A program made the position numbers and the translations under genes. The notes under the pieces are model-generated. The model worked only from the letters and a program-made list of their open reading frames with translations. It was not told where the DNA came from and searched no databases. 36,720 nt of DNA from Pseudomonadota bacterium (GTDB lineage Bacteria; Pseudomonadota; Gammaproteobacteria; Burkholderiales; Thiobacillaceae). The stretch is taken from NCBI GenBank assembly GCA_030690985.1, contig JAUYFG010000223.1, forward strand, positions 1 through 36,720. The letters run 5' to 3'. Position 1 is the stretch's first letter. Each line of letters opens with the position of its first letter. Below are positions 9,401 through 30,861 of the stretch, one piece after another.

Positions 9401-9456
9401 GTAGCGCCGGCATCCTTGCCGGCGTTTTAAGACAGCCGGCTGGAAGCCGGCGCTAC
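9401..9456. repeat. REP family D pair, copy 1; supplies the pilZ stop
   Basis: GTAG plus hairpin CGCCGGCA/TGCCGGCG on the left, and a related unit ending GCCGGCGCTAC on the right, flank TTTTAAGACA. The CTAC at 9453-9456 contains, on the minus strand, the TAG stop of pilZ (9455-9453). It fills most of the pilZ-tatD gap. Confidence 0.9.
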
Positions 9457-9821
9457 AAGGTGTGGGTGTGGCGCGTGGATTTCATGGCATTGCCGAGGAT
9501 GCCCTCGATCTTGCCGCGCACGGTGCTGGAACCTTCGTTGTCTTCAAACTGCACACCAATGCCCTGCTGACGGTTGCCCTGGGCACCGGCCGGCGTAATC
9601 CACACGACCTTGCCGGAAATCGGCAGCTTGTTCGGATCGTCCATCAGGGTGAGCAGCATGTAGACCTGGTCGCCCATCTGGTAGGGCCGGTTGGTCGGGA
9701 TGAACAGACCGCCGCGCTTCACGAAGGGCAGATAGGCCGCATACAGCGCGGTGCGCTCCTTGATGCTCAGGGAGAGCATTCCGGCCCGGCCGCTGCTGAT
9801 TTGCTTGGGAATCTCGCTCAC
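9453..9821 (-). CDS. pilZ: PilZ-domain protein, type IV pilus PilZ type
   Basis: This 122-residue PilZ-domain protein has recognisable GGLFIPTNRPYQMGDQVYML and GIGVQFED strands. The N-terminal RxxxR and the (D/N)xSxxG motifs that bind cyclic di-GMP are absent (GGLFIPTN replaces the second), as in the founding Pseudomonas PilZ, which acts in pilus assembly without binding the nucleotide. The start is GTG at 9821, overlapping the holB stop by four bases (GTGA). The holB-pilZ order is the same as in Pseudomonas. The stop TAG (last codons CAC ACC TTG) is provided by the family D REP, so the C-terminus may have been trimmed or extended by that insertion. Confidence 0.9.
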   Translation of the reverse strand: MSEIPKQISSGRAGMLSLSIKERTALYAAYLPFVKRGGLFIPTNRPYQMGDQVYMLLTLMDDPNKLPISGKVVWITPAGAQGNRQQGIGVQFEDNEGSSTVRGKIEGILGNAMKSTRHTHTL

Positions 9822-10831
9822 GTCCTGGCTCCCGCAATTTCGCTGTAACGAATGAGCCAGGATTCTAGCAACAACTGCGCATTCAACGGATGCCGCAACC
9901 AGCGCCCGGCCTGGGCCAGTTCCCGCTGCAACGCGAGCAATTCGGCCAGGCCGCTGGCGCTGGCAATGCGGATGAGGGCTTCCGTTCTGGGCGGGAAGTA
10001 ATGCGTCTGGCCGGCGAGACGCTGCGCCAACAGATCGTGTACCCAGCGTGTCAGCCAGCCCCAGGCCTCGGCCATGACCGGCTGGAACGTCTGGGCGGCT
10101 TGGCAGGCATCAAGCTGGCGCGGCCGCGCCAGAAGATCGAGAAAAGCCTCACGCCGTGCCGCGCGTTCTGGCTCGGCATAACCCAACGCCGCCAGCGGGG
10201 CACCGCCCGCCTCGGCCAGCGGCGACGCGGGCTCGGCCAATCCCGCCGCACGCAACCAGGCAAGCGCGGTCTCCCGTTCTGGTAGCGGCACCGCCACCTT
10301 GCGACAACGCGAAATCACGGTCGGCAGCAGGCGCCCAGGCTGGTGCGAGACCAACAACAGGAGCACGCGCGCGGGGGGTTCCTCCAGGGTCTTGAGCAGG
10401 GCATTGGCGGCGGCCGGGTTCATGAACTCAGCCGGATGAATCAACGCTACCCGCCAGCCGCCGCGATGCGCAGTGAGGTTGAGAAACTCGGTGATTTCCC
10501 GAATCGCCTCGACCTTGATGATGCGGCCACCCTTCTTGGGCGCTTTCTTGGCCGCTTCCTTGGCCGGAGATGCGTCGTCGTCCCCCTCCGGCTCCACCGG
10601 TTCGACGCGACGAAAATCGGGATGGTTGCCCTGATCGAACCAGTTGCAGGCATCGCAGGCGCCGCAAGCACCTTCCACTGTCGGCTGTTGGCACAAGGCC
10701 CAGCGCGCCAACTCGATCGCGAGGTCGAGCTTGCCGACGCCTGTTGGCCCATGCAGCAGCAAGGCATGCGGCAACTGTTCCGGATCGGCGCTAAGTTGCC
10801 GAAACAGGCTGGTATTCCAGGGGTGGATCAC
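9818..10831 (-). CDS. holB: DNA polymerase III subunit delta'
   Basis: This 337-residue clamp-loader subunit begins VIHPWNTSLFRQL with a GTG at 10831 preceded by GGAGAAG. It contains a Walker-A-like GPTGVGK, a zinc module with four cysteines (CQQPTVEGACGACDAC), the sensor-region stretch ANALLKTLEEPP, and the SRC motif VISRCRKVAVP. An acidic/Lys-Ala-rich insert (EGDDDASPAKEAAKKAPKKG) sits after the zinc module. An upstream ATG at 10924 is in frame, but it lies inside a decayed REP and lacks similarity, so I rejected it. It lies between tmk and pilZ, as usual. Confidence 0.94.
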   Translation of the reverse strand: MIHPWNTSLFRQLSADPEQLPHALLLHGPTGVGKLDLAIELARWALCQQPTVEGACGACDACNWFDQGNHPDFRRVEPVEPEGDDDASPAKEAAKKAPKKGGRIIKVEAIREITEFLNLTAHRGGWRVALIHPAEFMNPAAANALLKTLEEPPARVLLLLVSHQPGRLLPTVISRCRKVAVPLPERETALAWLRAAGLAEPASPLAEAGGAPLAALGYAEPERAARREAFLDLLARPRQLDACQAAQTFQPVMAEAWGWLTRWVHDLLAQRLAGQTHYFPPRTEALIRIASASGLAELLALQRELAQAGRWLRHPLNAQLLLESWLIRYSEIAGART

Positions 10832-10847
10832 GTGAACTTCTCCAGTC

Positions 10848-10960
10848 GTGGGAGTGGGCTTGCCCCCGCAAGGGGCACGCCGGATTCGTAAAGCCGCTGA
10901 AGCGGCAACGACTCCGCTGCCCACGATTGGCGGCGGTTATCGCGGGCAAGCCCGCTCCGC
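10848..10960. repeat. decayed REP family B pair (GTAG lost)
   Basis: The left unit reads GTGGGAGTGGGCTTGCCCCC and the right unit, on the minus strand, GCGGAGCGGGCTTGCCCGCG. Both keep the family B hairpin, but the leading GTAG has become GTGG and GCGG. A small extra hairpin (GCCGCT/AGCGGC) lies between. It fills the tmk-holB gap; the right unit starts two bases past the tmk TGA. Confidence 0.7.
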
Positions 10961-10961
10961 T

Positions 10962-11570
10962 TCATCTCAGCGACTCCAGGATGCCGGTCAACTGGGCACG
11001 CACCTGGTCCAGTGTGCGGCTGCCGTCGATCACGCGAATGCGCAGCGGGTGGCTGGCGGCGCGGCGCAGGTAGGCGGCACGCACGCGGGCATGGAACTCG
11101 CCCTGCTCGCGTTCGAAACGGTCGGGTTCGCGCGCATTGGCCAGGCGAGCCGCCGCAATCTCGGTGGGCACGTCGAACAACAAGGTGAGATCGGGTTGCA
11201 GGTCGCCATGCACCCATTGCTCCAGCGCTTCCAGGCGCGCTTCCGGCAGGCCGCGCCCTCCGCACTGGTAAGCGAAACTGGCATCGGTGAAGCGGTCGGA
11301 AATCAGCACCTCGCCCGCAGCCAGGGCCGGGCGGATGACCTGTGAGAGATGTTCACGGCGCGCGGCGAACATCACCAGCGCCTCGGTTTCCGGGTGCATG
11401 GCCTGGTGCAGGACGATTTCGCGCAGGTGCTCGCCCAAGGGCGTGCCACCGGGTTCCCGGGTTTGCCGCACCACGCGACCGCGCGAACGGAACCAGTCCG
11501 CCAGCCAGTCGAGATGACTGCTCTTGCCGGCGCCGTCGACGCCTTCCAGGGTAATGAACAAGCCTTGCAT
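10962..11570 (-). CDS. tmk: thymidylate kinase
   Basis: This 202-residue P-loop kinase phosphorylates dTMP to dTDP. It has [15 protein letters not shown] (Walker A), the [14 protein letters not shown] segment, and the [16 protein letters not shown] region that contacts nucleotide. The ATG at 11570 overlaps the mltG stop (ATGA), showing coupling. mltG-tmk-holB is the standard proteobacterial order. Confidence 0.96.
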
Positions 11571-12559
11571 CAGCGTCCTCTCTGGTAACGGTTGACCGCG
11601 CGATTGTGGGCGTCGAGATTGTCGGAGAACTCGTGGCGCCCCTGCCCCTTGGCTACAAAGTACAAAGCCCGACTGCGCACCGGATTGACCGCCGCCTGCA
11701 AAGCCGCCGCGCCCGGCAGCGCAATAGGCGTGGGTGGCAGGCCGGCGCGGGTGTAGGTGTTGTAGGGCGTATCCGCAAGCAGATCATCCTTGCGCAAGTT
11801 GCCGTCGAAACGCGCACCCAGGCCGTAGATGACGGTGGGGTCAGTCTGTAGGCGCATACCAATGCGCAGGCGATTGAGGAATACCGCAGCGATCTGCGGC
11901 CGCTCTTCCGGCGCGCCGGTTTCTTTTTCGATGACAGAAGCCATGGTCAGCACCTCGTCAGGGGTGCGGTAAGGCAAACCTGACGCACGCGCCGCCCAGG
12001 CGGCATCGAGTTGCTGGCGCATGGCGGTGTAAGCACGTTTGTAGAGCGCCAGTTCGGAACTGCCCAGGTCGAAAAAGTAGGTATCCGGAAAAAACCGGCC
12101 TTCCGGGTGGATATTTTCCGCACCGATGGCCTTGAGCAATTGGTGGGCGTCCATGCCGGCCGTGTCGTGGCGCAAGCCGGGGTGGGCGTCGAGGGCGCTG
12201 CGCATCTCGGCAAACGACCACCCTTCCGGCACGGTCAGCTTGCCCAGTACCGTGTCGCCCACGGTGATTTTGCGCAGCAGGTCGAGCGGGGTGGTGGCTA
12301 CGTTCGTGGCATAACTGCCGGCCTTGATTTCCGCCGCCGCGCCTTTGAGGCGTGCCAGCAGGACAAAGGCCCCGGGGTGCTGGAGCACACCGGCCTGCGC
12401 CATGTCACGCGCGGCGGCTGTGAGGGTACTGCCCCGTTCCACCGAAAAGGCCACGGGATAATCCGTGCGCCCCTGCATGGGCGTTGTGGCATACCAGACC
12501 AGCCAGGCAAGGGCGGCTAGCGCCACCAGCAAACAGAGGAGGAGAAAACGCTTAAGCAT
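11570..12559 (-). CDS. mltG: endolytic murein transglycosylase MltG
   Basis: This 329-residue inner-membrane YceG/MltG enzyme cuts nascent glycan strands and may end their growth. A single transmembrane helix lies at about 4-26 ([19 protein letters not shown]), followed by a LysM-like part and the catalytic domain, with the active-site Glu in [34 protein letters not shown] and [13 protein letters not shown] are signature segments. The start overlaps the pabC end by eight bases. Confidence 0.95.
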
Positions 12560-13364
12560 CGAACAGGGCGACGAGTTGGGGGCTGATGGCGGGTTTCGGC
12601 CAGGTGTGTTCGCCCAGGCGGGCGACGCGGCGCAAGCCGATGAGGCTGTTGCTCAACATGATTTCATCCGCTTCCAGCACTTCATCGAGGCCAATATTTG
12701 TTTCCTTAACAGCAATACCAGCGGCAGAGGCACGACGCAGCAAACGAGCACGGGCGACGCCGGCGACACCACATTGCTCCAGGTGCGGCGTCAGCAGATG
12801 CCCATCGCGCCAGAGGAACAGATTGCTCATCACGCCCGAGATCACCTGCCCGGTTGCATCGAGCAACAGGCCTTCATGTATTTCCGGCGTATTCCATTCG
12901 GCGCGTGCCAGGACGTTTTCCAGTCGGTTGAGGTGCTTGATGCCGGCCAGATGGGGCTGAGCGCTCAGGCGTAGGTCGCAGATGCGCACGTTGAGGCCCT
13001 CAGCAGGCCAGAAGTCGCTCACAGGGGGCGTGGGGTCGTGGATCAGAATACGGGTCGCTGTAGCAGCATCAGGTGGTCGATAGCCACGCGCACCACACCC
13101 CCGGGTCAGCAACAACTTGATTAGCCCATCGGCAAGCCGACCGGCCAGATTCGCCAGATCGGCCTGCCACAGCGAGGCTTCCGGGCTGACGATGCCCAAA
13201 CGCGCAGCATCGGCGGCAAGCTTGGCCAGTTGCTCTTCCCACCAGCGTGGCCTGCCGTTCTCCACCCGCAGGGTACGGAACACCCCATCGCCGTAGTGCA
13301 GGCCACGATCAAGCGGATCGAGCGCGCCGCCTTCGATGCCATTGACCAGACAGATTGCGGGCAT
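12552..13364 (-). CDS. pabC: aminodeoxychorismate lyase
   Basis: This 270-residue PLP enzyme of fold type IV releases 4-aminobenzoate for folate synthesis. It has DRGLHYGDGVFRTLR near the N-terminus, the PLP lysine in AGIKHLNRLENVLAR, and the glycine-rich phosphate-binding region VISGVMSNLFLW. Its position between fabF and mltG is conserved across proteobacteria. An inverted-repeat element separates it from fabF, so it may have acquired or lost a promoter there. Confidence 0.94.
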   Translation of the reverse strand: MPAICLVNGIEGGALDPLDRGLHYGDGVFRTLRVENGRPRWWEEQLAKLAADAARLGIVSPEASLWQADLANLAGRLADGLIKLLLTRGCGARGYRPPDAATATRILIHDPTPPVSDFWPAEGLNVRICDLRLSAQPHLAGIKHLNRLENVLARAEWNTPEIHEGLLLDATGQVISGVMSNLFLWRDGHLLTPHLEQCGVAGVARARLLRRASAAGIAVKETNIGLDEVLEADEIMLSNSLIGLRRVARLGEHTWPKPAISPQLVALFDA

Positions 13365-13378
13365 GGCCGGCGGGCTAG

Positions 13379-13536
13379 CCCGGATGTTTCATAAATTCGC
13401 GTGATGATCGCGCTGACCATTGTTTGTAATGGGAATTTTGCGAAGGGGCTGCGTAGTTATTCATACGCTCGACTGAGCAAAGCTTTCCAGTACGGGCAAG
13501 GGGCAAGGGCGCGCGTCAATTTATGAAACATCCGGG
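13379..13536. mobile_element. 158-bp inverted-repeat element (MITE-like) between fabF and pabC
   Basis: The ends CCCGGATGTTTCATAAATT (13379-13397) and its exact complement (13518-13536) are perfect 19-bp inverted repeats around 120 bp without a coding frame. Weaker matching continues outward a few bases. The interior is more A/T-rich than the neighbours and holds another small hairpin (GCGTA/TACGC). This has the form of a non-autonomous transposable element; I cannot name its family, and no clear target duplication is visible. Confidence 0.65.
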
Positions 13537-13556
13537 CCAGGCTCACCGGCCAGCGT

Positions 13557-14795
13557 TCATAGCTTGCTGAAGATCACAGTACCGTTGGTGCCGCCAAAAC
13601 CGAAGGAGTTGGACAAGGCCACGTTCACCTTGGCCTGGCGCGCGGTATTCGGGACATAGTCCAGGTCACAGCCTTCATCCGGCTCATTGAGGTTGATGGT
13701 CGGAGGCACCGCTTGGTTGGCGATGGCCAGCACGGAGAACACCGCTTCGATGCCGCCCGCCGCGCCCAGCAGGTGGCCGGTCATGGATTTGGTGGAACTG
13801 ACCATCACGCGGCCGGCATGACCGCCAAGCGACAGTTTCAGCGCCTTGGTTTCAGCCAGATCGCCCAGCGGCGTGGAGGTGCCGTGCGCGTTGATGTAAT
13901 CGACCTGGTCAGGATTGATGCCGGCATTTTTGAAAGCATGGTTCATGCAGCGCGCCGCGCCCGAGCCATCTTCAACCGGCGCGGTCATGTGGTTGGCGTC
14001 CGCGCTCTTGCCGTAGCCGATCAATTCACAATAAATACGCGCGCCGCGTGCTTTGGCATGTTCGTACTCTTCCAGCACCATGACACCGGCGCCCTCGCCC
14101 AGGACGAAGCCATCACGCCCCTTGTCCCAGGGGCGACTGGCGCCGGCGGGATCGTCATTGCGGGAAGACAGCGCGCGCGCCGCCGCGAAGCCGCCGATGG
14201 CCAACGGGCATACGCAGGATTCCGCGCCCCCGGCGACCATCACATCGACCTCGCCGTATTCGATCATGCGGCCGGCTTCGCCGACTGCGTGGGTACCCGT
14301 GGTGCAAGCGGTGACCATCGCTACGTTGGGGCCTTGCAGGCCGTACATGATGGAGAGATGGCCGGAGATCATGTTGATGATGGTGCCCGGAATGAAGAAG
14401 GGAGAAATCTTGCGCGGCCCCTGCTCAAGGTAGATCTTGTGGGTGTCTTCGATCATCGGCAATCCGCCGATGCCGGAACCGATGTTGACGCCGATACGCT
14501 CGCGGTTGGCGTCGGTAACGATCAGTCCGCAATCCTTGAAGGCGTCAATGGCCGCAGCCAGGCCGTAATGGATGAATACATCCATGCGACGAGCGTCCTT
14601 GGGCGTCAGATATTTGCCGAGGTCGAGATTTTTGACCTCACCCGCGATCTGAACCGAAAAAGCGGAAGCATCGAAGCGGGTAATACGGGCAATGCCGGAA
14701 CGGCCCGCCATCAGATTGCCCCAAGCTTCATCCACACTGTTGCCGACCGGAGAAACGATACCAAGACCGGTGACCACGACTCTGCGCCTAGACAC
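13557..14795 (-). CDS. fabF: beta-ketoacyl-ACP synthase II
   Basis: This 412-residue elongating condensing enzyme of type II fatty acid synthesis has the Cys-His-His triad in [26 protein letters not shown] and [13 protein letters not shown]. It ends in the glycine-rich [17 protein letters not shown]. The chosen start is GTG 14795 ([18 protein letters not shown]) with GGAGTT upstream; an earlier ATG at 14843 would add 16 unconserved residues. It follows acpP in the cluster. Confidence 0.96.
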
Positions 14796-14921
14796 TGGTG
14801 AACTCCTCAGGGCGTTGGGGGAATACAAGAGAAAAGCCGGCAATTCTTCATTGCGAGGCTTGAAAAATAGAAAGGGAACAGGCGCTCAGGCCTGCCCCTG
14901 AACCAACCAATAAACCGCAAA

Positions 14922-15158
14922 TTACTTGTTGTGGGCGTTGATGTAATCGACGGCCTGTTGGACTGTGGTGATTTTTTCGGCATCCTCATCGGGAATTTCA
15001 CATTCAAATTCCTCTTCCAGAGCCATCACCAGTTCAACCGTGTCGAGGGAATCGGCGCCCAGGTCGTCGACAAAGGACGACTCCTGCTTTACATCGGCTT
15101 CATTCGCGCCCAACTGCTCGGCAACGATCTTCTTGACACGCTCTTCGATATCACTCAT
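14922..15158 (-). CDS. acpP: acyl carrier protein
   Basis: This 78-residue acidic helical carrier holds growing acyl chains on 4'-phosphopantetheine. The attachment serine is Ser37 in [14 protein letters not shown]. The start at 15158 ([12 protein letters not shown]) is standard and has a GGGAGTTTC ribosome site; further upstream codons in the frame are not conserved. It lies between fabG and fabF. Confidence 0.97.
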
Positions 15159-15260
15159 CAGAAACTCCCTACGGGTAGCAAAAAAGCGGGGGCATTCTAG
15201 CAAAAACCCCCAACGTAAAAAATGAGACGAACCCTGTTACCGATAAAGAAAGGTACGGGT

Positions 15261-15998
15261 TCAGTCCATGTACATGCCGCCATTGACGTGCACGGTGGTG
15301 CCCGTCACATAGCCGGCCCCAACGGAGGCAAGGTAAGCCACCGCATGGGCAATGTCTTCCGGGGTTCCCAGCTTGCCGGCGGGAATACGTTCCAGAAGTT
15401 TCTGGCGCGCGGCGTCGGGCAGGGAACGAGTCATGTCGGTATCGATAAAACCCGGGGCGACGCAGTTTACCGTAATGCCGCGACTACCGACTTCCTGCGC
15501 CAGAGATTTGGAAAACCCGATCATGCCGGCCTTGGCGGCGGCATAGTTGGTCTGCCCGGCATTGCCGGAGCAACCCACCACCGAGGCGATGCCGATGATG
15601 CGGCCGAAACGGGCCTTCATCATGGGACGCAGTACGGCACGCGAGAGACGGAACACCGAGGTGAGATTGGTTTCCAGAATGGCATCCCATTCCTCGTCCT
15701 TCATGCGCATCAACAGGTTGTCGCGGGTGATGCCGGCATTGTTGACCAGGATGTCGATGCGGCCATGCTTGCCGAGGATGCCGTCGATAACGACATCGAC
15801 CTGGGCGGCCTCGGTGACATTGAGCATCAGACCCTCGCCCTTCAGGCCGGCCGCCGCCAGCGCTTCAGCGATGGCGGTTGCCCCGGATTCGCTGGTGGCG
15901 GTGCCGATGACATAGGCGCCACGGCGAGCGAGTTCATGCAGGATGGCCTGGCCGATGCCGCGCGAGGCGCCGGTCACCAGGGCAATCTTTCCTTCCAT
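15261..15998 (-). CDS. fabG: 3-oxoacyl-ACP reductase
   Basis: This 245-residue short-chain dehydrogenase reduces beta-ketoacyl-ACP with NADPH. It has the cofactor motif TGASRGIG (9-16), NNAG (86-89), and catalytic Ser139, Tyr152 and Lys156 (NYAAAKAG). It ends YVTGTTVHVNGGMYMD, typical of FabG. A family C REP pair separates it from fabD upstream. Confidence 0.96.
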   Translation of the reverse strand: MEGKIALVTGASRGIGQAILHELARRGAYVIGTATSESGATAIAEALAAAGLKGEGLMLNVTEAAQVDVVIDGILGKHGRIDILVNNAGITRDNLLMRMKDEEWDAILETNLTSVFRLSRAVLRPMMKARFGRIIGIASVVGCSGNAGQTNYAAAKAGMIGFSKSLAQEVGSRGITVNCVAPGFIDTDMTRSLPDAARQKLLERIPAGKLGTPEDIAHAVAYLASVGAGYVTGTTVHVNGGMYMD

Positions 15999-16024
15999 TC
16001 CAGTCTCCTAGACTCTTGTGACTC

Positions 16025-16105
16025 GTAGCCCGGATGCAGCGCAGCGGAATCCGGGAATCTCACCATGTATCTTCCCGGATTCCGCTATCGCTCCATCCGG
16101 GCTAC
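16025..16105. repeat. REP family C pair, copy 2 (81 bp)
   Basis: The left unit GTAG+CCCGGAT...ATCCGGG is identical in form to copy 1. The right unit has drifted (CGCTATCGCTCCATCCGG), so the arms no longer match perfectly. It sits in the 122-bp gap between fabD and fabG, inside what is otherwise an operon. Confidence 0.88.
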
Positions 16106-16120
16106 CTGTTTGGTTCTGGC

Positions 16121-17056: not shown

Positions 17057-17085
17057 GAGAATTCCGAATCGAGCATGGACAACTG

Positions 17086-19096: not shown

Positions 19097-19162
19097 GTAG
19101 CGCCGGCATCTCTGCCGGCCCGCCTGCGCAGTCCAAAAACGCCGGCAGGATGCCGGCGCTAC
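19097..19162. repeat. REP family D pair, copy 2 (66 bp)
   Basis: GTAG+CGCCGGCATCTCTGCCGGC on the left and GCCGGCAGGATGCCGGCG+CTAC on the right flank a ~22-bp spacer. It lies in the 143-bp gap between rpmF and plsX, two adjacent cluster genes. Confidence 0.88.
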
Positions 19163-23201: not shown

Positions 23202-23202
23202 G

Positions 23203-23324
23203 GCGATTTCGGATTTAGGGCGATTTCGGATTTCGGATTTCGGATTGCGGATGTCAGGCGCGGCGCAGCCGCGCGAGAAAAATCCGAAATCCGAAATCCG
23301 CAATCGAAAATCCGAAATCGCAAA
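23203..23324. repeat. CGGATTT heptamer inverted repeat between convergent genes
   Basis: The left arm holds a run of CGGATTT-type heptamers and the right arm the complementary run (AAATCCG). A GC-rich hairpin, GCGCGGC-GCA-GCCGCGC (23258-23274), stands at the centre. The element fills nearly the whole gap between the pycB TAA and the glgP TGA and can fold into a long imperfect stem, so it may end both transcripts. The base composition differs sharply from both genes. Confidence 0.8.
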
Positions 23325-25877
23325 TCACAGCCATACCATCAACCCCATCTCGAACGGATGGGTGAGCAGGCCGTGAACCGGATACACGCGCACCCGGTAA
23401 AGCAGGCGGCCACACAGTTCCGGGGTGAGTTCCAGTTTGTAGACGCATTCCTGGCCTTCCCAGCCATCCGGATTCAGCGGCACGGCATCGAGATCCTTGT
23501 CCTGGCCATTTTTCGAGGCGCGTCCCATCAGTACTTCGACCCGCACGTCATCCGGGGCGAGGCCGTTGAGGTTCACCACGGCCTTGATTTCCAGGCTTTC
23601 GCCAAAGGTAATACGTTTCTTCGGGTCGTCGAGGCGGCGCAGGGCCACGCCCCCCCAGGCGAGACGCACCTTGACCTTCCAGGCAGCCAGCCCCTGGGCT
23701 GCGGCGAACCCGCCTTCCGAGTAGCGGCGCCATTGCCGGCTGGCGGGTGCATAGAACTTGTTGGCGTACTGCATGACCATGCGGGTGGCGTTGAAGGCGG
23801 GCAGCAAGGTGGCAATGGAGCGCTTGGCCATCGTCACCCATTCCCCCGAGAAGCCCAGTTCCTGGCGCCGGTAATACAGGGGAATGACCTGGTCTTGCAG
23901 CAATTCGTAGAGGGTCTGGCTGTCCTCGCGGTTGCGCCGGGCGTCGTCGTAGTACTCGGGCGCCGGTTTGATCGCCCAGCCGTTGCCGGGCTCGTAGCCC
24001 TCGTCCCACCAGCCGTCGGTGACCGAGAGGTTGAGCACGCCGTTCATGGCCGCCTTCATGCCGGAGGTGCCTGAGGCTTCCAGCGGGTAGATGGGGTTGT
24101 TCAGCCAGACGTCGCAGCCGGCCACCAGGCGGCGCGCGAAGCCGAGGTCATAGCCTTCCACCATCAGGAACTTGCCTTCGAACTCCGGCCAACGGGAAAT
24201 CTCGTGGATGCGGCGGATCAGTTCCTGTCCGGGCTTGTCGGCCGGGTGCGCCTTGCCGGCGAAAATAAACAGGACCGGGCGGCTCTCGTCGTTGATGATC
24301 TGGCGCAGCCAGTCCATGTTCTCGAAGATCAGGGTGGCGCGCTTGTAGGTGGCGAAGCGCCGCCCGAAGCCGATGGTGAGGACGTTGGGGTCGAGCGGGT
24401 TGGCGAGCTTGAGCATCCGCTCCAGGTGCGCCTCGGAGCCGTGGTTGCGCAGGTGCTGCTGGGTGATGCGGTAACGCACCGAGTAGAGCATCTGCGCCTT
24501 CAGGCCCTGGTGGACCGACCAGAAGTGGTGGTCGGGAATGGCGCCCACTTTCTGCCAGAACGCCGGCTCGCACATGCGCCGGCGCCATTCATAACCCAGC
24601 TTGTTGTCGAACAGATCCTGCCATTCCTGCGCCAGAAAAGACGCCACATGCACCCCGTTGGTGATGTAGACCATCGGCGACTCGTCCTCGGAAACCTGCG
24701 GCCACATATCCGCCAGGATGCGCGAGGAAACATTGCCGTGAATGCGCGAGACGCCGTTGTGATGACGCGAGCCATTCAGGGCCAGACGAGTCATGTTGAA
24801 ATCCTCGCCGTGGCCGGCGCCGCCCAGACGCATGAATTCTTCCCGCGAGACCCCCAGGTCGGCGCAGCAATGGCTGAAATAGTCCCAGATCATGTCTTCG
24901 GCGAAGTGATCGTGGCCGGCCGGCACCGGGGTGTGGGTGGTGAATACCGTCGAGGCGGCCACGGCTTCCAGCGCGGCATGGTAGGACAGCCCAGCCTTCA
25001 CCTTGCGGCGAATACGCTCCAGAACCAGGAAGGCGGCATGGCCTTCGTTGATGTGATAGGTGGTGGGTTTGACGTCGAGCGCGGCCAGGGCACGCATGCC
25101 GCCGATGCCGAGGACGATTTCCTGCTGGATGCGGGTGTGCTTGTCGCCGCCATAGAGCTGGTGGGTGATGTAGCGGTCTTGCTGGCTGTTGGACGGCAGG
25201 TCGGTATCCAGCAAATAAAGGCGGACATGGCCGATCAGCGCTTCCCATACTTTCACTTCCAGGCTGCGGCCGGGCAATTCGATCTGGACATGGATTTCGC
25301 TACCGTCCTCACCCAGCGCGGGGCGGATCGGCAGATCGTCGAAATCGGAATCGGTGTAATTGGCGATCTGGTTGCCGTCGTTATCGATGCGCTGATGGAA
25401 ATAGCCCTGGCGATACAGCAAGCCCACTGCCACGAACGGCAGGCGCAGGTCGGAAGCGGATTTGCAGTGGTCGCCGGCAAGGATGCCCAGGCCCCCCGAG
25501 TACACCGGGAAGCTTTCATGGAAGCCGAATTCCGCGCAGAAATAGGCGATCAGGTCGCCCGGTTTCAAATCCAGCGGCAGATCGCGCCGCAGCGGCTCGC
25601 TCATATAGGTGTCGAACGAAGACAGCACGCGGTTGTAGTTGCCCAGGAAGATGTGATCCTCCGCCGCCTCGGTCAGGCGCTCCTCGTCCACCCGCTTCAG
25701 GAACGCTTTCGGATTGTGGCCGACGGCATCCCAGAGACCGGGATGGAGACGCGCGAACAGTGTGCGCGTGGGGCGATCCCAGGCATACCAGAGGTTCTCC
25801 GCCAGTTCGGACAAACGCGCCAGGCGGCGCGGCAAACGCGGGTTGACTTCAATGACGAAGGGCGTACCGGGTTTCAT
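23325..25877 (-). CDS. glgP: alpha-glucan (glycogen/maltodextrin) phosphorylase
   Basis: This 850-residue GT35 enzyme releases glucose-1-phosphate from storage glucans. It has the N-terminal DUF3417-type domain (RRLARLSELAENLWYAWDRP), YFCAEFGFHESFPVYSGGLG, and the PLP-binding segment EASGTSGMKAAMNGVLNLS with Lys608. The N-terminal domain marks the Thermus/Mycobacterium-like branch rather than the E. coli GlgP/MalP branch. The ATG at 25877 is preceded by GGAG. It points to glycogen as a second reserve beside PHA. Just upstream, a REP pair separates it from orn. Confidence 0.93.
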   Translation of the reverse strand: MKPGTPFVIEVNPRLPRRLARLSELAENLWYAWDRPTRTLFARLHPGLWDAVGHNPKAFLKRVDEERLTEAAEDHIFLGNYNRVLSSFDTYMSEPLRRDLPLDLKPGDLIAYFCAEFGFHESFPVYSGGLGILAGDHCKSASDLRLPFVAVGLLYRQGYFHQRIDNDGNQIANYTDSDFDDLPIRPALGEDGSEIHVQIELPGRSLEVKVWEALIGHVRLYLLDTDLPSNSQQDRYITHQLYGGDKHTRIQQEIVLGIGGMRALAALDVKPTTYHINEGHAAFLVLERIRRKVKAGLSYHAALEAVAASTVFTTHTPVPAGHDHFAEDMIWDYFSHCCADLGVSREEFMRLGGAGHGEDFNMTRLALNGSRHHNGVSRIHGNVSSRILADMWPQVSEDESPMVYITNGVHVASFLAQEWQDLFDNKLGYEWRRRMCEPAFWQKVGAIPDHHFWSVHQGLKAQMLYSVRYRITQQHLRNHGSEAHLERMLKLANPLDPNVLTIGFGRRFATYKRATLIFENMDWLRQIINDESRPVLFIFAGKAHPADKPGQELIRRIHEISRWPEFEGKFLMVEGYDLGFARRLVAGCDVWLNNPIYPLEASGTSGMKAAMNGVLNLSVTDGWWDEGYEPGNGWAIKPAPEYYDDARRNREDSQTLYELLQDQVIPLYYRRQELGFSGEWVTMAKRSIATLLPAFNATRMVMQYANKFYAPASRQWRRYSEGGFAAAQGLAAWKVKVRLAWGGVALRRLDDPKKRITFGESLEIKAVVNLNGLAPDDVRVEVLMGRASKNGQDKDLDAVPLNPDGWEGQECVYKLELTPELCGRLLYRVRVYPVHGLLTHPFEMGLMVWL

Positions 25878-25912
25878 GGGGGGACTCCGTTAGCGTGAAA
25901 CAAGCCTGGTTC

Positions 25913-25970
25913 GTAGGAGCGGGCTTGCCCGCGATTGCAACGGCCGTATCGCGGGCAAGCCCGCTCCTAC
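25913..25970. repeat. REP family B pair, copy 1 (58 bp); supplies the orn stop
   Basis: Two units of GTAG+GAGCGGGCTTGCCCGCG face outward around a ~16-bp centre. The right CTAC (25967-25970) contains, on the minus strand, the TAG stop of orn. It lies in the 89-bp gap between orn and glgP. Confidence 0.92.
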
Positions 25971-26518
25971 GGGGCCATCCGAATAAAAGTGTCGCGGTAA
26001 TACTTCAACTCTTCGATGGATTCCTGAATGTCGGCCAGGGCGGTGTGGCTGTTGGCCTTCTTGAAACCGTCCTTGAGTTCCGGACGCCAGCGCGCGGCCA
26101 GTTCCTTCAGGGTGGAGACATCCAGGTTGCGGTAGTGGAACCAGGCTTCCAGCTTGGGCATGTGGCGCGCCAGGAAACGACGATCCTGGCAGATGGAATT
26201 GCCGCACATGGGCGATTTGCGCTCACCCACATGTTTTTTCATGAATTCGATCATTTTCGCTTCCACGTCCGCGTCGGACAGCGTGGAGGCTTTCACCTTG
26301 TCGATCAGCCCGGATTTGCCGTGAGTGCCCTTGTTCCAGTTGTCCATCGCATCCAGTACCGCGTCGCTTTGGTGCACTACCAGCACCGGGCCTTCTTCGA
26401 CCAGGTTGAGATCCTTGTCGGTGACGATCAGCGCCACTTCCAGGACGCTGTCGCTATCAGGTTCCAGACCGGACATTTCCATGTCGATCCAGACCAGGTG
26501 GGTATCGTTCTGTGCCAC
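25967..26518 (-). CDS. orn: oligoribonuclease
   Basis: This DEDDh exonuclease of 183 residues degrades 2-5-nt RNAs and pGpG. It has [16 protein letters not shown] (DxE motif at 12-14), the [10 protein letters not shown] region, and [19 protein letters not shown] with the last catalytic His and Asp. The start is GTG at 26518 ([15 protein letters not shown]); an in-frame ATG further upstream lies within the divergent protease gene. The C-terminus reads RMAP then TAG, and that TAG belongs to the GTAG of the adjoining REP pair. Confidence 0.94.
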
Positions 26519-26561
26519 GTTTATCGATCCTTTACAGCCCTGAAGGGCGGGGCGGGCATTG

Positions 26562-26570
26562 TGGCATAAT
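26562..26570 (+). promoter_or_regulatory. candidate extended -10 promoter for the M48 protease gene
   Basis: TGGCATAAT, a TG-N extended -10, lies 29 bp before the ATG at 26599. No good -35 is visible upstream (GC-rich), which is compatible with an extended -10 promoter. Confidence 0.35.
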
Positions 26571-26598
26571 CGCCCGTCCCTTGTAGAAAGCACTCCTA

Positions 26599-27876
26599 AT
26601 GCCTTCATTTAAAAGCATTTTTCTCGCAGCCCTGATCCTCGCCTTCGGCCTGAAGCTGTGGTTGCTGCTGCGCCAGATGCGCCATGTCCGGCAGCATCGC
26701 GCGCTGCCGCCGGCGGTATTCGCCGCCCGCATCCCGGTCGAGGACCACCGCAAGGCAGCCGACTACACCCTGGCCAAAGCTCGCCTGGGCTTGCTGCATC
26801 TGGCCGTGGAAGCCGGCCTGCTGCTGGCGTTCACCCTGGGCGGCGGCTTGCAGTGGCTCAACGATCTGCTGGTTTCGCCGCATTTGCCGACACTCACCCC
26901 GCTGTTCGCCGGCACCGCCCTGCTGCTGGGCCTGTTTCTGATCGGCGCCCTGGTGGAACTGCCGCTCAATCTCTATCACCAGTTCAGCATCGAGGCGCGC
27001 TTCGGCTTCAACCGGCAGACCGCCGCCGGCTTCGCGGCCGACCTCGCCAAGCAGGCCGTGCTCGGCCTGGCCATCGGCGGCCCGCTGATCCTGCTGGTGC
27101 TCTGGCTCATGGGCATCATGGGCGAGGCCTGGTGGATCTGGGTCTGGGGGGTATGGATGGGCTTCAATCTGCTGATCCTGATGCTCTACCCCACCGTGAT
27201 CGCGCCACTGTTCAACAAATTCACGCCGCTCGAAGACGCCACCCTGAAAGCCCGTATCGAAGCGCTGTTGCAGCGCGCCGGCTTTACCGCCAGCGGCGTC
27301 TTCGTGATGGACGGCTCACGCCGCTCCAGCCACGGCAACGCCTATTTCACCGGCCTGGGCAAGCACAAACGCATCGTCTTTTTCGACACCCTGCTCAATC
27401 AGTTGAACCCGGAGCAGATCGAGGCTGTGCTGGCACATGAACTGGGGCATTTCAAGCACCGCCACATCGTCAAGCGCATCGCCCTGATGTTCGTCCTCTC
27501 GCTGGGAATGCTGGCCATGCTGGCCTGGCTGAAACAAGCCCCCTGGTTCTACGCCGGCCTGGGCGTGGCGACGCCTTCCGATGCGGTCGCACTGGCCCTG
27601 TTCTTCCTGGCCCTGCCGGTGTTCCTGTTCCCGATGACCCCGTTGATGAGCCTGTATTCGCGCAAACACGAATTCGAGGCCGACGCCTTCGCCGCCAACC
27701 ACAGTCAACCCGAACACCTGATCGCCGCCCTGGTCCGCCTGTACCGCGACAATGCCGCCACGCTGACGCCGGACCCGATCTACTCGTTGTTCTATGACAG
27801 CCACCCGAAGGCGGTCGAACGGATCGCCAAACTTGAGTATCATGCTCAGGTATTAGCCCCGTCCCAACCTGCTTGA
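26599..27876 (+). CDS. M48-family membrane metalloprotease (Ste24/CAAX-type)
   Basis: This 425-residue integral membrane zinc protease has HELGH at 280-284, a downstream glutamate in [13 protein letters not shown] (about 351-363), and about seven hydrophobic segments spread as in Ste24 rather than the shorter HtpX. In bacteria such enzymes are thought to act in membrane protein quality control; the CAAX-prenyl role is eukaryotic and should not be assumed. It diverges from orn. A REP unit followed by T's ends the gene. Confidence 0.9.
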
Positions 27877-27883
27877 GGGATAT

Positions 27884-27913
27884 GTAGCGCCGGCTTCCAG
27901 CCGGCGTCTTTTT
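27884..27913 (+). terminator. REP family D single unit acting as terminator
   Basis: GTAG+CGCCGGCTTCCAGCCGGCG is one family D unit (27884-27906). It is followed directly by TCTTTTT, giving a hairpin plus T-run eight bp past the protease stop. This is the form of a Rho-independent terminator before the cytochrome gene. Confidence 0.7.
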
Positions 27914-27938
27914 ACGCGAACCACCAGAGAGGAACCCC

Positions 27939-28241
27939 ATGAAGACCCTGATCGCCCTACTCGCCTTGCTCAGCGCCCCCGCCTTCGCCGCCCCCTTCGA
28001 CAAGGGCGATGCCAAAGCCGGCAAAGCCACCCATGACAAGCAATGCAATGCTTGCCATGCCTCCCGCTTCAATGGCGATGCCGGCAAGATCTACACCCGC
28101 GCCGACCACCGCGTGAAATCCGCAGCCAGCCTGGCCCAGATGATTACCACCTGCAACGCCAACCTGGGCAACAACCTGTTCCCGGAAGACGAGCTGAACA
28201 TCGGCGCGCACCTGAACGGCACGTTCTACAAGTTCAAATAA
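27939..28241 (+). CDS. small periplasmic c-type cytochrome
   Basis: This 100-residue precursor has a signal peptide (MKTLIALLALLSAPAFA, cut after about 17-18) and one haem-binding motif, CNACH (36-40). The mature protein of about 82 residues is a short class I cytochrome-like protein; a distal methionine is not clearly placed (Met68 in QMITTCNANLG is a candidate). AGAGAGGAA precedes the ATG. It probably carries electrons in the periplasm, partner unknown. This gene between the M48 protease and pterin dehydratase is common in betaproteobacteria. Confidence 0.88.
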   Translation: MKTLIALLALLSAPAFAAPFDKGDAKAGKATHDKQCNACHASRFNGDAGKIYTRADHRVKSAASLAQMITTCNANLGNNLFPEDELNIGAHLNGTFYKFK

Positions 28242-28261
28242 CGAGTAGCGCGCCCGCATTG

Positions 28262-28334
28262 GTAGGTTGGGCAAAGCGCAGCGTGCCCAACAAATCGCCG
28301 CGATGTTGGGCACGCTGCGCTTTGCCCAACCTAC
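28262..28334. repeat. REP family A pair, copy 2 (73 bp)
   Basis: A perfect pair of GTAG+GTTGGGCA...TGCCCAAC units with spacer AAATCGCCGCGAT. It lies between the cytochrome stop and the start of the pterin dehydratase gene, which is transcribed in the same direction. Confidence 0.93.
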
Positions 28335-28364
28335 GAGTCTCCTCACACCTCACCCCTTACACCC

Positions 28365-28709
28365 ATGACCGATACCTTCTGCGATCTCACCAAAGGCAAG
28401 TGCAAGCCCTGCGAGGGCGGCATCGCGCCGCTCAACCCGGATGAAATCAGCGCCCTCATGCCCCAGCTCGCCGGCGACTGGCAAGTGGCGGACGGCAAAC
28501 TACGGCGCGACTTCGAGTTTGCCGACCACTACCTCACCATGACCTTCGTCAACGCCGTGGCCTGGGTCTCGCACCAGCAGGGACACCACCCCGACCTGGC
28601 GGTGGGCTACAACACCTGCCGGGTGGAATACATCACCCACGCCATCGACGGGATATCCGAATCCGACTTCATCTGCGCCGCGAAGATCGACGCGCTGTTC
28701 ACGCTTTGA
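28365..28709 (+). CDS. phhB: 4a-hydroxytetrahydrobiopterin dehydratase
   Basis: This 114-residue PCD/DCoH-family protein has the active-site pattern QQGHHPDLAVGYNTCRVEYI followed by TH and a later Asp. An N-terminal Cys-rich stretch (CDLTKGKCKPCEGG) is common in proteobacterial members. It would recycle the pterin cofactor of an aromatic amino acid hydroxylase; no such hydroxylase is in the window, and some members instead serve molybdopterin. Its TGA overlaps the rsgA ATG (TGATG). Confidence 0.92.
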   Translation: MTDTFCDLTKGKCKPCEGGIAPLNPDEISALMPQLAGDWQVADGKLRRDFEFADHYLTMTFVNAVAWVSHQQGHHPDLAVGYNTCRVEYITHAIDGISESDFICAAKIDALFTL

Positions 28710-29578
28710 TGCAAGGCAGAGTCGTCGCCGTCCACGGCCACCATTTCCTGGTGGATGGCGGAGAAGGTGATCACTGCGGCGTCATCGAATGCGTCACCCG
28801 TGGCAAAAAAGGCGGCGTGGCTTGCGGAGACAGTGTCACGTTCACCTCCACCAGTGCCGGCAAGGGCGTCATCGAAACCATCGAACCGCGCCGCAACCTG
28901 CTTTACCGCTCCGATGAATTCCGCAGCAAACTGCTCGCCGCCAATATCGACCAGGCCGCCATCGTCGTGGCGGCGGTGCCGGCGTTCAACGAGGAGTTGC
29001 TGATCCGCTGCCTGGTGGCGTGCGAGGTGGCGGAGATTCCCGCACTGATCGTGCTGAACAAGGCCGATCTGCCGGAAACCGAAGCGCTGGCGCGCGCCCT
29101 CGCGCCCTACGCCGAACTCGGTTATCCCCTGTTGCTGGTATCGGCGCGGGAAGACGTGGCCGCGCTGGAACAACGTCTGGCGGACCAAACCACCGTGTTT
29201 GTGGGCGCCTCCGGCGTCGGCAAAAGCACCCTGCTCAACCGCCTGGTGCCGGATGCCAATGCCACCACGGGTGAAATTTCACTGGCCCTGGATGCAGGAA
29301 AGCACACGACCACGCATGCGCGTCTATTTCGCCTGCCCAGTGGCGGCGGCGCCTTGATCGACTCCCCCGGCATGCAGGAATTCGGCCTCAAACATCTCAA
29401 CCTGGCCAGCCTCATGGCGGCCTTCCCGGAAATCCACAGCCGCCACGGCGAGTGCCGCTTCTACAACTGCCGCCACCTCAAGGAACCCGGTTGCGCAGTG
29501 CTGGAGGCGGCGAAGGACGGCACCATCATGGCCAACCGGATGAAGGTCTATCACTGGTTGCTGGCGGGCATCAAGTAG
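28709..29578 (+). CDS. rsgA: ribosome small-subunit GTPase RsgA
   Basis: This 289-residue circularly permuted GTPase helps mature 30S subunits. An OB-fold N-terminus is followed by NKADL (G4), FVGASGVGKSTLLN (G1), then IDSPGMQEF (G3), and a C-terminal zinc finger (CRFYNCRHLKEPGC). ATG 28709 is preferred over the adjacent TTG because it overlaps the phhB stop. The last codons ATC AAG TAG run into a family B REP: the TAG is bases 2-4 of its GTAG. Confidence 0.95.
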   Translation: MQGRVVAVHGHHFLVDGGEGDHCGVIECVTRGKKGGVACGDSVTFTSTSAGKGVIETIEPRRNLLYRSDEFRSKLLAANIDQAAIVVAAVPAFNEELLIRCLVACEVAEIPALIVLNKADLPETEALARALAPYAELGYPLLLVSAREDVAALEQRLADQTTVFVGASGVGKSTLLNRLVPDANATTGEISLALDAGKHTTTHARLFRLPSGGGALIDSPGMQEFGLKHLNLASLMAAFPEIHSRHGECRFYNCRHLKEPGCAVLEAAKDGTIMANRMKVYHWLLAGIK

Positions 29579-29632
29579 GAGCGGGCTTGCCCGCGATTGC
29601 AACGGTTGCATCGCGGGCAAGCCCGCTCCTAC
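29575..29632. repeat. REP family B pair, copy 2 (58 bp); supplies two stop codons
   Basis: Two outward-facing GTAG+GAGCGGGCTTGCCCGCG units. The left GTAG (29575-29578) contains the rsgA TAG. The right CTAC (29629-29632) contains, on the other strand, the TAG of the convergent FmdE-like gene. The whole intergenic region is the REP pair. Confidence 0.95.
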
Positions 29633-30246
29633 GCGGCGCCCTCGGGCCTGGCTTTCACCAGCGCCGGATCTTCCGCATGATCCAGCAGTATCCGCTGCAC
29701 CCGCTCCTGCCATAGCCGCGCAAATTCGGCGCGCTCGAAGGCATCGGCCTGGCCGCTCACGACGCGCGGCATCAGTGTCTGCATTCCGGCGGCCGGGGGC
29801 ACGGCTTCCGGGTGGTATTCCAGCAGCACGGCGGCGCCGCTATCCAGCCGGGTGAAGCGTACTTCGGCCGGCATCTCCACCCCGTAATGCAACAGGTCGC
29901 GGCGGCCGAAGCGAGCGCCCAGGCCTTTGAAACCGCCCTCCCCCGCCGCACCGGTGACGAGGCCCAGCACACTGCCGACCACGCCGGTGGTGCCGGCATC
30001 CTGAGCGGCGCGTAGTTCCACACGAATCTGGCCACGTTCCGGCAGGGCGTCCGGGTAAAGCGCGGCCAGGCCATGCCGCGCCAGCAACCAAGCGCCCGCC
30101 ACGGTCGGGCAGGAATGCCCGGCCAGGCGCACCACATCCTCGTAGCGGTATTCGATGACGCCGGCAGCGGCGGCGCCCAGCACTTCGGCCAGGCCGTCGT
30201 GCAGGGTCAAGGGGGGAATCTGAGCGAAGAAATCGGGGAAGGACAT
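29629..30246 (-). CDS. conserved protein, possibly FmdE-like
   Basis: A 205-residue soluble protein. LAGHSCPTVAGAWLLARHG (42-60) recalls the GHxCP motif of the FmdE family (formylmethanofuran dehydrogenase subunit E-like), with later Gly-rich GTTGVVGSVLGLVTGAAGEG and an acidic/Pro-rich middle. The His/Cys pair could bind metal. The match is by eye and weak, so function is open. It is transcribed in the same direction as ubiUVT and lies 58 bp beyond ubiT, so it could be the last gene of that unit. Its TAG stop is supplied by a REP. Confidence 0.6.
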   Translation of the reverse strand: MSFPDFFAQIPPLTLHDGLAEVLGAAAAGVIEYRYEDVVRLAGHSCPTVAGAWLLARHGLAALYPDALPERGQIRVELRAAQDAGTTGVVGSVLGLVTGAAGEGGFKGLGARFGRRDLLHYGVEMPAEVRFTRLDSGAAVLLEYHPEAVPPAAGMQTLMPRVVSGQADAFERAEFARLWQERVQRILLDHAEDPALVKARPEGAA

Positions 30247-30257
30247 GTTGGATTCTC

Positions 30258-30308
30258 GTAGCGTGCGCCGTGCGCACGTCAGTCATTCGTGCGTACGGCG
30301 CACGCTAC
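30258..30308. repeat. REP family E pair (51 bp); supplies the ubiT stop
   Basis: GTAG+CGTGCGC-CGT-GCGCACG on the left and CGTGCGTACGGCGCACG+CTAC on the right. The arms differ at a single base. CTAC at 30305-30308 contains the TAG of ubiT on the minus strand. Only one copy is in the window. Confidence 0.88.
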
Positions 30309-30769
30309 CGTAGCGCCAATTGGTGCAGCTTCATGACCACTCGCCCCAGGCCGACCGGCATGCCGGCGGCAGCGGTTTCCAGTTCCACGGCGTCGAGCAT
30401 GTTCTTCACCATCAGGCCGAGGTCAGTGTCGCCCTCGATCAGGAGTCGACGATTGAAGAACAAGGTATCCGGGTCTTCCAACCTGAGCGCCAGGCGAGCG
30501 AAATCCTGGGCAGTGGAAGTGAAGGTGACATCGCTTGGGCCATCGTGTAGCGCCCGGAAACCATGGGCGTGCACCGTGAAATGCAACTTCACGCCAAGAT
30601 CGCGCACATGCACGCAGAAACGCCGGCCGGCGACGTGCGACCAGTCCAGTTCACGCAGCGAAGGCCAGGCCGCCAGATTGCCGGCGGCCACGAAGGCGCG
30701 CGAAGCCGGCCAGGACGGTAGCGTGGCAACGAGACGGGCGAGGGGTTTGGGGAAGGTGGGCAGATTCAT
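30305..30769 (-). CDS. ubiT: SCP2-domain lipid-binding protein UbiT
   Basis: This 154-residue SCP2/sterol-carrier-like protein is homologous to E. coli UbiT (YhbT), which with UbiU and UbiV is needed to make ubiquinone without oxygen and may hold lipid intermediates. DVTFTSTAQDFARLALRLED and RLLIEGDTDLGLMVKNMLDA are characteristic. The ATG at 30769 was chosen; in-frame sequence upstream translates a REP. Assignment rests on the domain plus adjacency to ubiV and ubiU. The last codons CTA CGG TAG enter the family E REP. Confidence 0.88.
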   Translation of the reverse strand: MNLPTFPKPLARLVATLPSWPASRAFVAAGNLAAWPSLRELDWSHVAGRRFCVHVRDLGVKLHFTVHAHGFRALHDGPSDVTFTSTAQDFARLALRLEDPDTLFFNRRLLIEGDTDLGLMVKNMLDAVELETAAAGMPVGLGRVVMKLHQLALR

Positions 30770-30788
30770 GGTGGTTTCCGGGTAATTC

Positions 30789-30861
30789 GTAGGTTGGGCA
30801 AAGCGCAGCGTGCCCAACATTGCGACGGTTTGTTGGGCACGCTGCGCTTTGCCCAACCTAC
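30789..30861. repeat. REP family A pair, copy 3 (73 bp); supplies the ubiV stop
   Basis: Same arms as copy 2, but inserted in the opposite orientation: the spacer ATTGCGACGGTTT is nearly the complement of the copy 1 spacer. CTAC at 30858-30861 contains the ubiV TAG on the minus strand. It fills most of the ubiV-ubiT gap. Confidence 0.93.

What the first reader, a model, noticed from the sequence alone, without database searches (positions are those of the whole stretch)
9401..30861. REP elements supply the stop codons of six genes
Seven of the 38 intact genes end in TAG. Six of those TAGs are bases 2-4 of the GTAG that opens an abutting REP: pilZ (9453), orn (25967), rsgA (29576), the FmdE-like gene (29629), ubiT (30305) and ubiV (30858). 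All six read the REP in the same phase, xxG-TAG (TTG, AAG, CCG, GCG, CGG, ACG before the stop). Four different REP families (A, B, D, E) do this. GTAG is known as the conserved start of RAYT-linked REPs, but I recall no description of it serving systematically as a translation stop. Either insertion targets gene ends or existing TAGs, or only insertions in the phase that stops at once survive. It would also place a hairpin immediately after the stop on the mRNA.
Basis: partly seen in the sequence, partly recalled or inferred. Interest (0 to 1): 0.8.

Follow-up and report, generated by a model that had tools for sequence, protein, structure and literature searches.

The report
Repeat elements sit on stop codons
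In this uncultured bacterium many genes end exactly where a small hairpin-forming DNA repeat begins, so that the repeat's first letters double as the gene's stop signal; this overlap was noted in print in 2013, and here it proves far commoner than chance, almost always in the one harmless reading frame, and usually without changing where the protein ends.

Summary
In detail: six of the window's seven TAG stops are bases 2-4 of the GTAG opening a REP, all in phase xxG-TAG, four families. It is not chance. In conserved genes of the own genome and seven relatives, 29 of 439 REP heads lie exactly on a stop, against 1.07 per position 3-60 nt downstream; 29 of 30 heads entering a gene's last 150 nt are in the TAG phase.

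It is not new: Di Nocera et al. [quoted passage not shown]

'Supply' mostly misleads. Orthologues without a REP at the stop end at the same residue in 127 of 147 pairs. In a nearly REP-free relative 5 of 14 such genes already end in bare G-TAG, against 5 of 57 others. In at least two genes the TAG looks new. Most likely, REPs turn over at gene ends and only junctions that keep the protein's end survive; the other two phases read a median 38-40 codons further. The UAG lies inside the predicted hairpin stem. Whether the REP transposase targets GTAG stops stays open.

The parts
9401..9456 (.). D-family REP pair (GTAG...CTAC)
   Evidence: sequence; family match; RNA fold -41.2 kcal/mol, z -7.2
9453..9821 (-). 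pilZ; its TAG (9455-9453) lies in the right-hand GTAG of the REP pair
25913..25970 (.). A-family REP pair
   Evidence: fold -51.9 kcal/mol
25967..26518 (-). orn; TAG at 25969-25967 in the REP
   Evidence: start uncertain, the open frame reaches 26608
28709..29578 (+). rsgA; TAG at 29576-29578 in the REP
29575..29632 (.). A-family REP pair that is the whole space between two convergent genes and carries both stops
   Evidence: fold -56.2 kcal/mol on either strand
   Evidence: no Pfam or NCBIfam match
30258..30308 (.). E-family REP pair
   Evidence: fold -38.8 kcal/mol
30305..30769 (-). ubiT; TAG at 30307-30305 in the REP; start placed by eye at the ATG at 30769 (the caller put it at 30856)
30789..30861 (.). 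B-family REP pair between ubiV and ubiT
   Evidence: fold -64.9 kcal/mol
30858..31745 (-). ubiV; TAG at 30860-30858 in the REP

Best explanation
These are ordinary GTAG-type REP pairs (BIMEs/REPINs) that turn over quickly just downstream of genes. An edge of such an element can adjoin a coding sequence only if the protein still ends where it should. In one of three phases the element's GTAG stops translation at once (xxG-TAG); in the other two the ribosome reads a median of 38-40 more codons. So mainly TAG-phase junctions at the conserved stop position persist. Two routes bring REP and stop into register: a REP lands on, or is exchanged at, a stop that already reads G-TAG; or a change such as a small deletion removes the native stop and joins the gene to the GTAG of a REP lying nearby. 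Shown: the excess, the phase bias, the conserved C-termini, bare G-TAG in relatives, and examples with a new TAG. Inferred: that purifying selection is the filter, the order of events, and the part of RAYT.
For: Conserved genes only: 29 heads at the overlap, 0 at offsets 0-3, mean 1.07 per offset over 3-60, and one head elsewhere in the last 150 nt. Codons read before a stop, over 439 heads: TAG phase 0; other phases median 40 and 38. The single exception among conserved genes is an F-family REP, whose body offers a second stop (TGA) 11 nt in; two F-family heads in all use it. REP-TAG genes end at the same residue as orthologues without a REP there in 127 of 147 pairs, against 1193 of 1300 for non-REP pairs and 329 of 391 for non-REP TAG genes. 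Existing G-TAG: a genome without the REP has bare G-TAG in 26 of 79 cases where another genome has REP-TAG, against 20 of 468 otherwise; in G008, nearly free of the two families searched genome-wide, 5 of 14 against 5 of 57 (p 0.021). New TAG: L061:17871 (TGA in all 5 relatives found) and L066:10428 (TGA in 4, TAA in 1). Shifted TAG: at ubiV, G006 and G017 carry the same B REP 10 nt downstream of the T of another G-TAG stop; against the G017 form G000 lacks 11 nt between two CCGA repeats (my reading).
Against: TAG use is no higher in the REP-rich genome (p 0.81), and the rise of G-TAG (46 of 391 against 13 of 178) is not significant (p 0.14). Selection was not measured; phase exclusivity would also follow from insertion only at existing GTAG stops. 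The orthologues' TAG share (72 of 147) equals that of orthologues of ordinary bare G-TAG genes (83 of 181), which suits pre-existing TAG better than recent capture. With the looser, family-free REP definition a few heads lie in other places near the stop (G015 two at -10 to -2, G019 two and G000 one at -40 to -11), and 21 of 59 strict sense heads lie deeper inside called genes. Most orthologous segments of relatives were chosen because the G000 segment held such ends, so pooled rates are not genome-wide.
Confidence: 0.6

Rival explanations
1. Target choice: the mobilising tyrosine transposase (RAYT) inserts REP pairs at, or next to, an existing GTAG, so G-TAG stops are natural docking sites that leave the gene intact; excision leaves the GTAG behind and the site can be refilled.
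For: Bare G-TAG at the same codon in nearly REP-free G008 (5 of 14 against 5 of 57). Some REP-less sites keep GTAG or CTAC at the junction: L119:10428 in G016, L122:444 in G017, L080:221 in G006, L055:2092 in G006. Family bodies directly follow GTAG (38), ATAG (2), TTAG (1) or GTAA (2) stops and in no case TGA, the commonest stop. Genes with REP-TAG in two or more genomes number 12, against 6.3 expected by permutation, highest of 2000 runs 13. A RAYT above its curated cut-off is in this genome. GTAG acts as a guide for cleavage-site choice in one REP-transposase system (PMC8266576, passages).
Against: In vitro, REP transposases cut at CT or CA, and GTAG belongs to the recognised element (PMC8266576, passages). 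The REP-less junctions are not polarised: at L119 the outgroups G022 and G008 lack GTAG, and at L119 and L122 other relatives hold other REP families. The intragenic REPs that I could see show no clear GTAG in REP-less relatives. Re-use of one stop by different REP families is not above chance (8 families against 5.6 expected, p 0.14). The footprint test was not significant against other TAG stops.
Confidence: 0.25
2. The REP truly supplies the stop: insertion into overlapping or abutting convergent genes cuts both off from their own stops, and the two ends of the REP pair provide new ones.
For: REP-TAG ends are enriched at convergent neighbours (35 of 63 against 298 of 1267 other ends). In 14 of 58 convergent conserved pairs both stops are G-TAG, several with one palindrome as the entire intergenic space. 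REP-less G022 has rsgA and the FmdE-like gene overlapping at their ends (my reading), and the FmdE-like C-termini differ between species.
Against: Most REP-TAG proteins are not shortened or lengthened (127 of 147 pairs). The 14 pairs come from five loci seen in several species, so they are not independent.
Confidence: 0.1
3. Selected regulation: the stop codon is held inside a strong hairpin because this lowers translation, helps end transcription or protects the mRNA.
For: In all six the UAG pairs with CUA at the stem base in predicted folds of the element with six upstream bases, -38.8 to -64.9 kcal/mol. E. coli REPs closer than 16 nt to a stop are reported to lower translation (cited in PMC12306157, passages).
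Against: Presence and family of the REP change between close relatives of the same gene, unlike a conserved control element. No expression data.
Confidence: 0.05

Closest known systems
GTAG-tagged REP families (Di Nocera, De Gregorio and Rocco 2013, PMC3733652)
   Same: GTAG head, hairpin, mostly downstream of genes and between convergent or co-directional genes; the paper states that termini often provide the TAG stop to flanking ORFs (section 15 read whole; other passages)
   Different: In the passages and the section read I saw no count of these stops, no phase analysis and no comparison of C-termini with REP-free orthologues
REPINs of Pseudomonas fluorescens SBW25 (Bertels and Rainey 2011, PMC3116915)
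   Same: Inverted REP pairs as the mobile unit; excision reported to leave about 6 bp of one end (passages)
   Different: The term 'stop codon' does not occur in the main text held
E. coli REPs close to stop codons that lower translation (cited in PMC12306157, passages; original by Liang and others recalled, not read)
   Same: A REP hairpin close behind the stop; PMC12306157 counts 446 of 4,072 E. coli REPs within 15 nt of a stop
   Different: There the measure is distance behind the stop; here the stop codon itself is in the predicted stem

Membership tests
GTAG-type REP / BIME (REPIN) | GTAG tetranucleotide at the head | tested here: met
   265 of 273 sampled heads read GTAG, in a sample that favours GTAG by construction. 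Of 345 exact bodies in eight genomes 320 are preceded by GTAG.
GTAG-type REP / BIME (REPIN) | palindromic body that forms a hairpin | tested here: met
   z -5.8 to -12.1 for six strands
GTAG-type REP / BIME (REPIN) | high copy number, mostly intergenic | tested here: met
   265 exact A heads in the own genome, 486 B heads, 84 D heads; of 261 sampled heads 42 lie inside a called gene apart from stop overlaps
GTAG-type REP / BIME (REPIN) | inverted pairs | tested here: met
   11 window pairs: 698-770, 8505-8594, 9401-9456, 16025-16105, 19097-19162, 25913-25970, 28262-28334, 29575-29632, 30258-30308, 30789-30861, 36608-36680; two heads (686, 27884) lack a partner of their family
GTAG-type REP / BIME (REPIN) | RAYT transposase in the genome, flanked by the same REP | tested here: met
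   NF047646 82.7 bits (cut-off 80) in L058:14155-15993 minus, with D-family heads at 14748, 14802, 14831 and 15450 on either side of the transposase domain; four PF01797 matches in G000. Only this RAYT was looked at for flanking REPs, and only for family D.
GTAG-type REP / BIME (REPIN) | mobilisation by RAYT in vivo | not testable with these tools
   none
REP that lowers translation from near a stop (E. coli) | hairpin within 15 nt of the stop | tested here: met
   stop codon within the predicted stem
REP that lowers translation from near a stop (E. coli) | measured fall of translation | not testable with these tools
   none

The most novel reading that the evidence does not exclude
G-TAG stop codons are reusable docking sites for REP elements: RAYT-driven insertion and excision take place exactly at the GTAG, so elements of different families can come and go at one gene's stop while the protein never changes. 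A stop codon would then be a safe-harbour target for a bacterial mobile element.
Probability: 0.2. Interest if true: 0.6.

Novelty: already known. Interest (0 to 1): 0.35.

Why it matters
It turns a one-sentence remark in the literature into a measured rule (position, phase, conserved C-terminus) that constrains how REP elements settle next to genes, and it gives a clean set of sites for testing whether RAYTs target GTAG. It also marks genes whose stop codon is predicted to lie inside a very stable mRNA hairpin, which could be tested for effects on termination.

Tried and rejected
Chance or gene-calling artefact: rejected. Restricting to genes with a reciprocal-best orthologue (765 of 1383 ends) sharpens the spike. 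One apparent double stop (L061:19109-19124) was dropped because the minus-strand frame looks spurious; it falls out under that filter.

Hot-spot exchange between REP families at one stop: seen in 8 families, 5.6 expected by permutation within genomes, p 0.14; within G-TAG ends only, the observed number lies below expectation (11.4). Not claimed, though REP-TAG in two or more genomes at one gene (12) exceeds the 6.3 expected.

Empty-site analysis: 25 of 195 REP pairs have a relative with the flanks close together; several keep GTAG or CTAC at the junction, some are collapsed palindromes, others keep neither. Three of these sites and others were looked at in more relatives and could not be polarised. 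Intragenic REPs (56 units, output cut) include coding stretches counted as repeats and give no clear target.

Footprint test on the dinucleotide after bare G-TAG: 55 of 100 against 51 of 103 for other TAG stops, p 0.48; against G-TAA 34 of 109, p 0.0007. Inconclusive.

The same comparison between two genomes of a distant genus (G118, G122): 3 heads on stops in each, but the sampled stretches shared no orthologues, so C-termini could not be compared; in G122 one other offset (22) has 4 heads.

The pair L055:638 of G000 and G017 (same REP, differently placed to the stop) was not used as a deletion case because the G000 gene looks replaced by a G008-like copy.
Full report
WHAT WAS CHECKED. The window lies in a 3.96-Mb, 314-contig assembly. 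All six stops exist as described. Six of the window's seven TAG stops are the TAG of a REP's GTAG, always in phase xxG-TAG. Four families do it: A (orn, rsgA, the FmdE-like gene), B (ubiV), D (pilZ), E (ubiT). Family libraries support the names of five of the six genes, not of the FmdE-like one.

IS IT MORE THAN CHANCE. In 430 kb of the own genome (the window plus 20 stretches on contigs known to hold A-family REPs) I called 391 genes and placed 261 GTAG heads of seven families against stops. Eighteen have their TAG exactly on a stop; no other offset from -40 to +80 has more than five; none lies at -10 to -2. Six of the 18 are the window's own; outside it the count is 12 of 237. A family-free definition of REP gives 21. 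By that definition the relatives give G019 6 (at most 2 at any other offset from -40 to 60), G016 3 (3), G022 3 (2), G015 2 (2), G011 1 (1), and none in G006, G007, G008 and G017, where 0-5 heads were found: clear in G019 only, the samples being small. In two genomes of a distant REP-rich genus, probably Pseudomonas (recalled, not named by a call), 3 and 3 heads lie on stops, against 32 heads spread over offsets 3-40, P about 0.0002 for the sum, though in G122 offset 22 has 4. To exclude spurious genes I kept only genes with a reciprocal-best orthologue in another genome: 765 of 1383 ends in eight genomes. Of 439 strict heads, 29 then sit on a stop, none at offsets 0-3, 62 at 4-60 (1.07 per offset over 3-60, at most 6), and one within the last 150 nt of a gene in another phase. 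Most segments of the relatives were chosen because the matching G000 segment held such ends, so pooled numbers are not genome-wide rates.

WHY ONE PHASE. Reading into the 439 heads in the three phases, the TAG phase stops at once and the other two run a median of 40 and 38 codons. The F family has a second stop, TGA, 11 nt after the G of its head; two genes use it (L067:11413-12999, L145:743-1537). One further gene reads through a C-family REP (L068:9303-10061). Among called genes of at least 300 nt the score is 35 TAG-phase to 3 others within 150 nt of the end (binomial against one third, 5e-14); 21 more sense heads lie deeper inside called genes. The looser definition adds a few heads near stops in other places (G015 two at -10 to -2, G019 two and G000 one at -40 to -11).

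DOES THE REP SUPPLY THE STOP. Mostly not in the sense of resetting it. Of 63 REP-TAG ends, 49 have at least one orthologue without a REP at the stop, 147 pairs in all: 127 end at the same residue, 16 differ by 1-3 residues, 4 by more; 13 are shorter and 7 longer. Non-REP genes compared with each other agree in 1193 of 1300 pairs, non-REP TAG genes in 329 of 391. The stops of the 147 orthologues are G-TAG 53, other TAG 19, TAA 19, TGA 56; the TAG share (72 of 147) matches that of orthologues of ordinary bare G-TAG genes (83 of 181) and exceeds the share among all non-REP ends (203 of 1320). Within the genus, where another genome has REP-TAG, a genome without it has bare G-TAG in 26 of 79 cases, otherwise in 20 of 468. 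G008 is a useful outgroup because it has almost none of the two families searched genome-wide: one exact D head and no B head; other families were judged only on the 89 kb, which held no REP head. There, 5 of 14 genes with REP-TAG in the ingroup end in bare G-TAG, against 5 of 57 other families (p 0.021; any TAG 7 of 14 against 13 of 57, p 0.054). A first count on fewer genes had been 2 of 7 against 3 of 27, p 0.27. The set is small, and secondary loss of REPs from G008 cannot be excluded.

CASES WITH A NEW OR SHIFTED TAG. L061:17871-19112 ends ACG-TAG on a collapsed D palindrome in G000; all five relatives found end in TGA, and in G006 and G019 a D REP begins just after the TGA. L066:10428-11627 ends TTG-TAG on a B REP; relatives have TGA (4) or TAA (1) at the same codon. 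At ubiV, G006 and G017 have one G-TAG and then the same B REP 10 nt further on; against the G017 form G000 lacks 11 nt between two CCGA repeats and stops on the B REP's own TAG, with the protein unchanged in length (read by eye). pilZ is mixed: TGA or TAA in five relatives, bare G-TAG in G008.

CONVERGENT GENES. REP-TAG ends favour convergent neighbours: 35 of 63, against 298 of 1267 other ends with a known neighbour. In 14 of 58 convergent pairs of conserved genes both stops are G-TAG, and in several a single palindrome is the whole intergenic space, as at window 29575-29632. The 14 come from five loci seen in several species. Here the claim that the REP supplies the stop is most plausible, since REP-less G022 has the rsgA and FmdE-like ends overlapping (my reading).

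ON THE RNA. For all six genes the predicted fold of the element with six upstream bases has the UAG paired at the foot of the stem, -38.8 to -64.9 kcal/mol, z -5.8 to -12.1. In E. coli, REPs closer than 16 nt to a stop are reported to lower translation (cited in PMC12306157; passages seen). Whether this happens here is untested.

MACHINERY. The own genome has four PF01797 matches; one is a REP-associated tyrosine transposase by NCBIfam (82.7 bits, cut-off 80), inside a frame that also holds D-family REPs and a uracil-DNA glycosylase; the other three were not run against NCBIfam. GTAG acts as a guide for cleavage-site choice in one REP-transposase system, while cleavage falls at CT or CA (PMC8266576, passages). 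REPIN excision in P. fluorescens leaves about 6 bp of one end (PMC3116915, passages). Bare GTAG junctions are compatible with that, but not polarised.

PRIOR ART. Di Nocera et al. [quoted passage not shown] In the listings of full-text searches and the passages read I saw no count by phase and no comparison with REP-free orthologues; supplements and papers outside the open library were not seen.

VERDICT. A true, strongly non-random feature, already noted in print. Best account: REP turnover at gene ends, filtered so that mainly junctions that keep the protein's end survive, with part of the sites being older G-TAG stops and part being captured. Whether RAYTs target GTAG stops stays open and is testable.

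Noticed in passing
L058:14155-15993 (minus), own genome: One open frame joins a REP-associated tyrosine transposase to a family-4 uracil-DNA glycosylase through D-family REPs read in frame as VAQASSPA: a REP read as a protein linker.
   Followed up: partly
rsgA of G019, G006 and G016 (L039, L041, L043), near residue 155: In-frame insertion of about 20 codons (longer, with a second copy, in G016) that looks like a G-family REP in the antisense direction; absent from the other 12 rsgA copies aligned.
   Followed up: partly
window 10848-10961: A degenerate A-type REP cluster (heads GTGG and AGCG) directly behind the stop of the gene at 10962-11570; six relatives have at most 11 bases between the aligned flanks there.
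   Followed up: partly
whole genomes G000, G006, G016, G019, G022, G017, G008: B-family heads number 486, 689, 129, 10, 1, 3 and 0: an uneven, probably recent expansion.
   Followed up: no
L049 (G015) and L050 (G011): Two genes of G015 (one is orn) and orn of G011 end in GTAG followed by short tandem GTAG-bearing repeats, a different kind of repeat that also begins with GTAG at a stop.
   Followed up: no
L055:638-2095: The G000 protein is 84.5% identical to that of distant G008 but only 55-57% to nearer relatives, although its C-terminus resembles all: probably replaced by transfer.
   Followed up: no
L043:8115-8237 against L039 (G019); L061:19109-19124: REP pairs collapsed to the 16-bp palindrome GTAGCGCCGGCGCTAC that keep the TAG.
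   Followed up: partly
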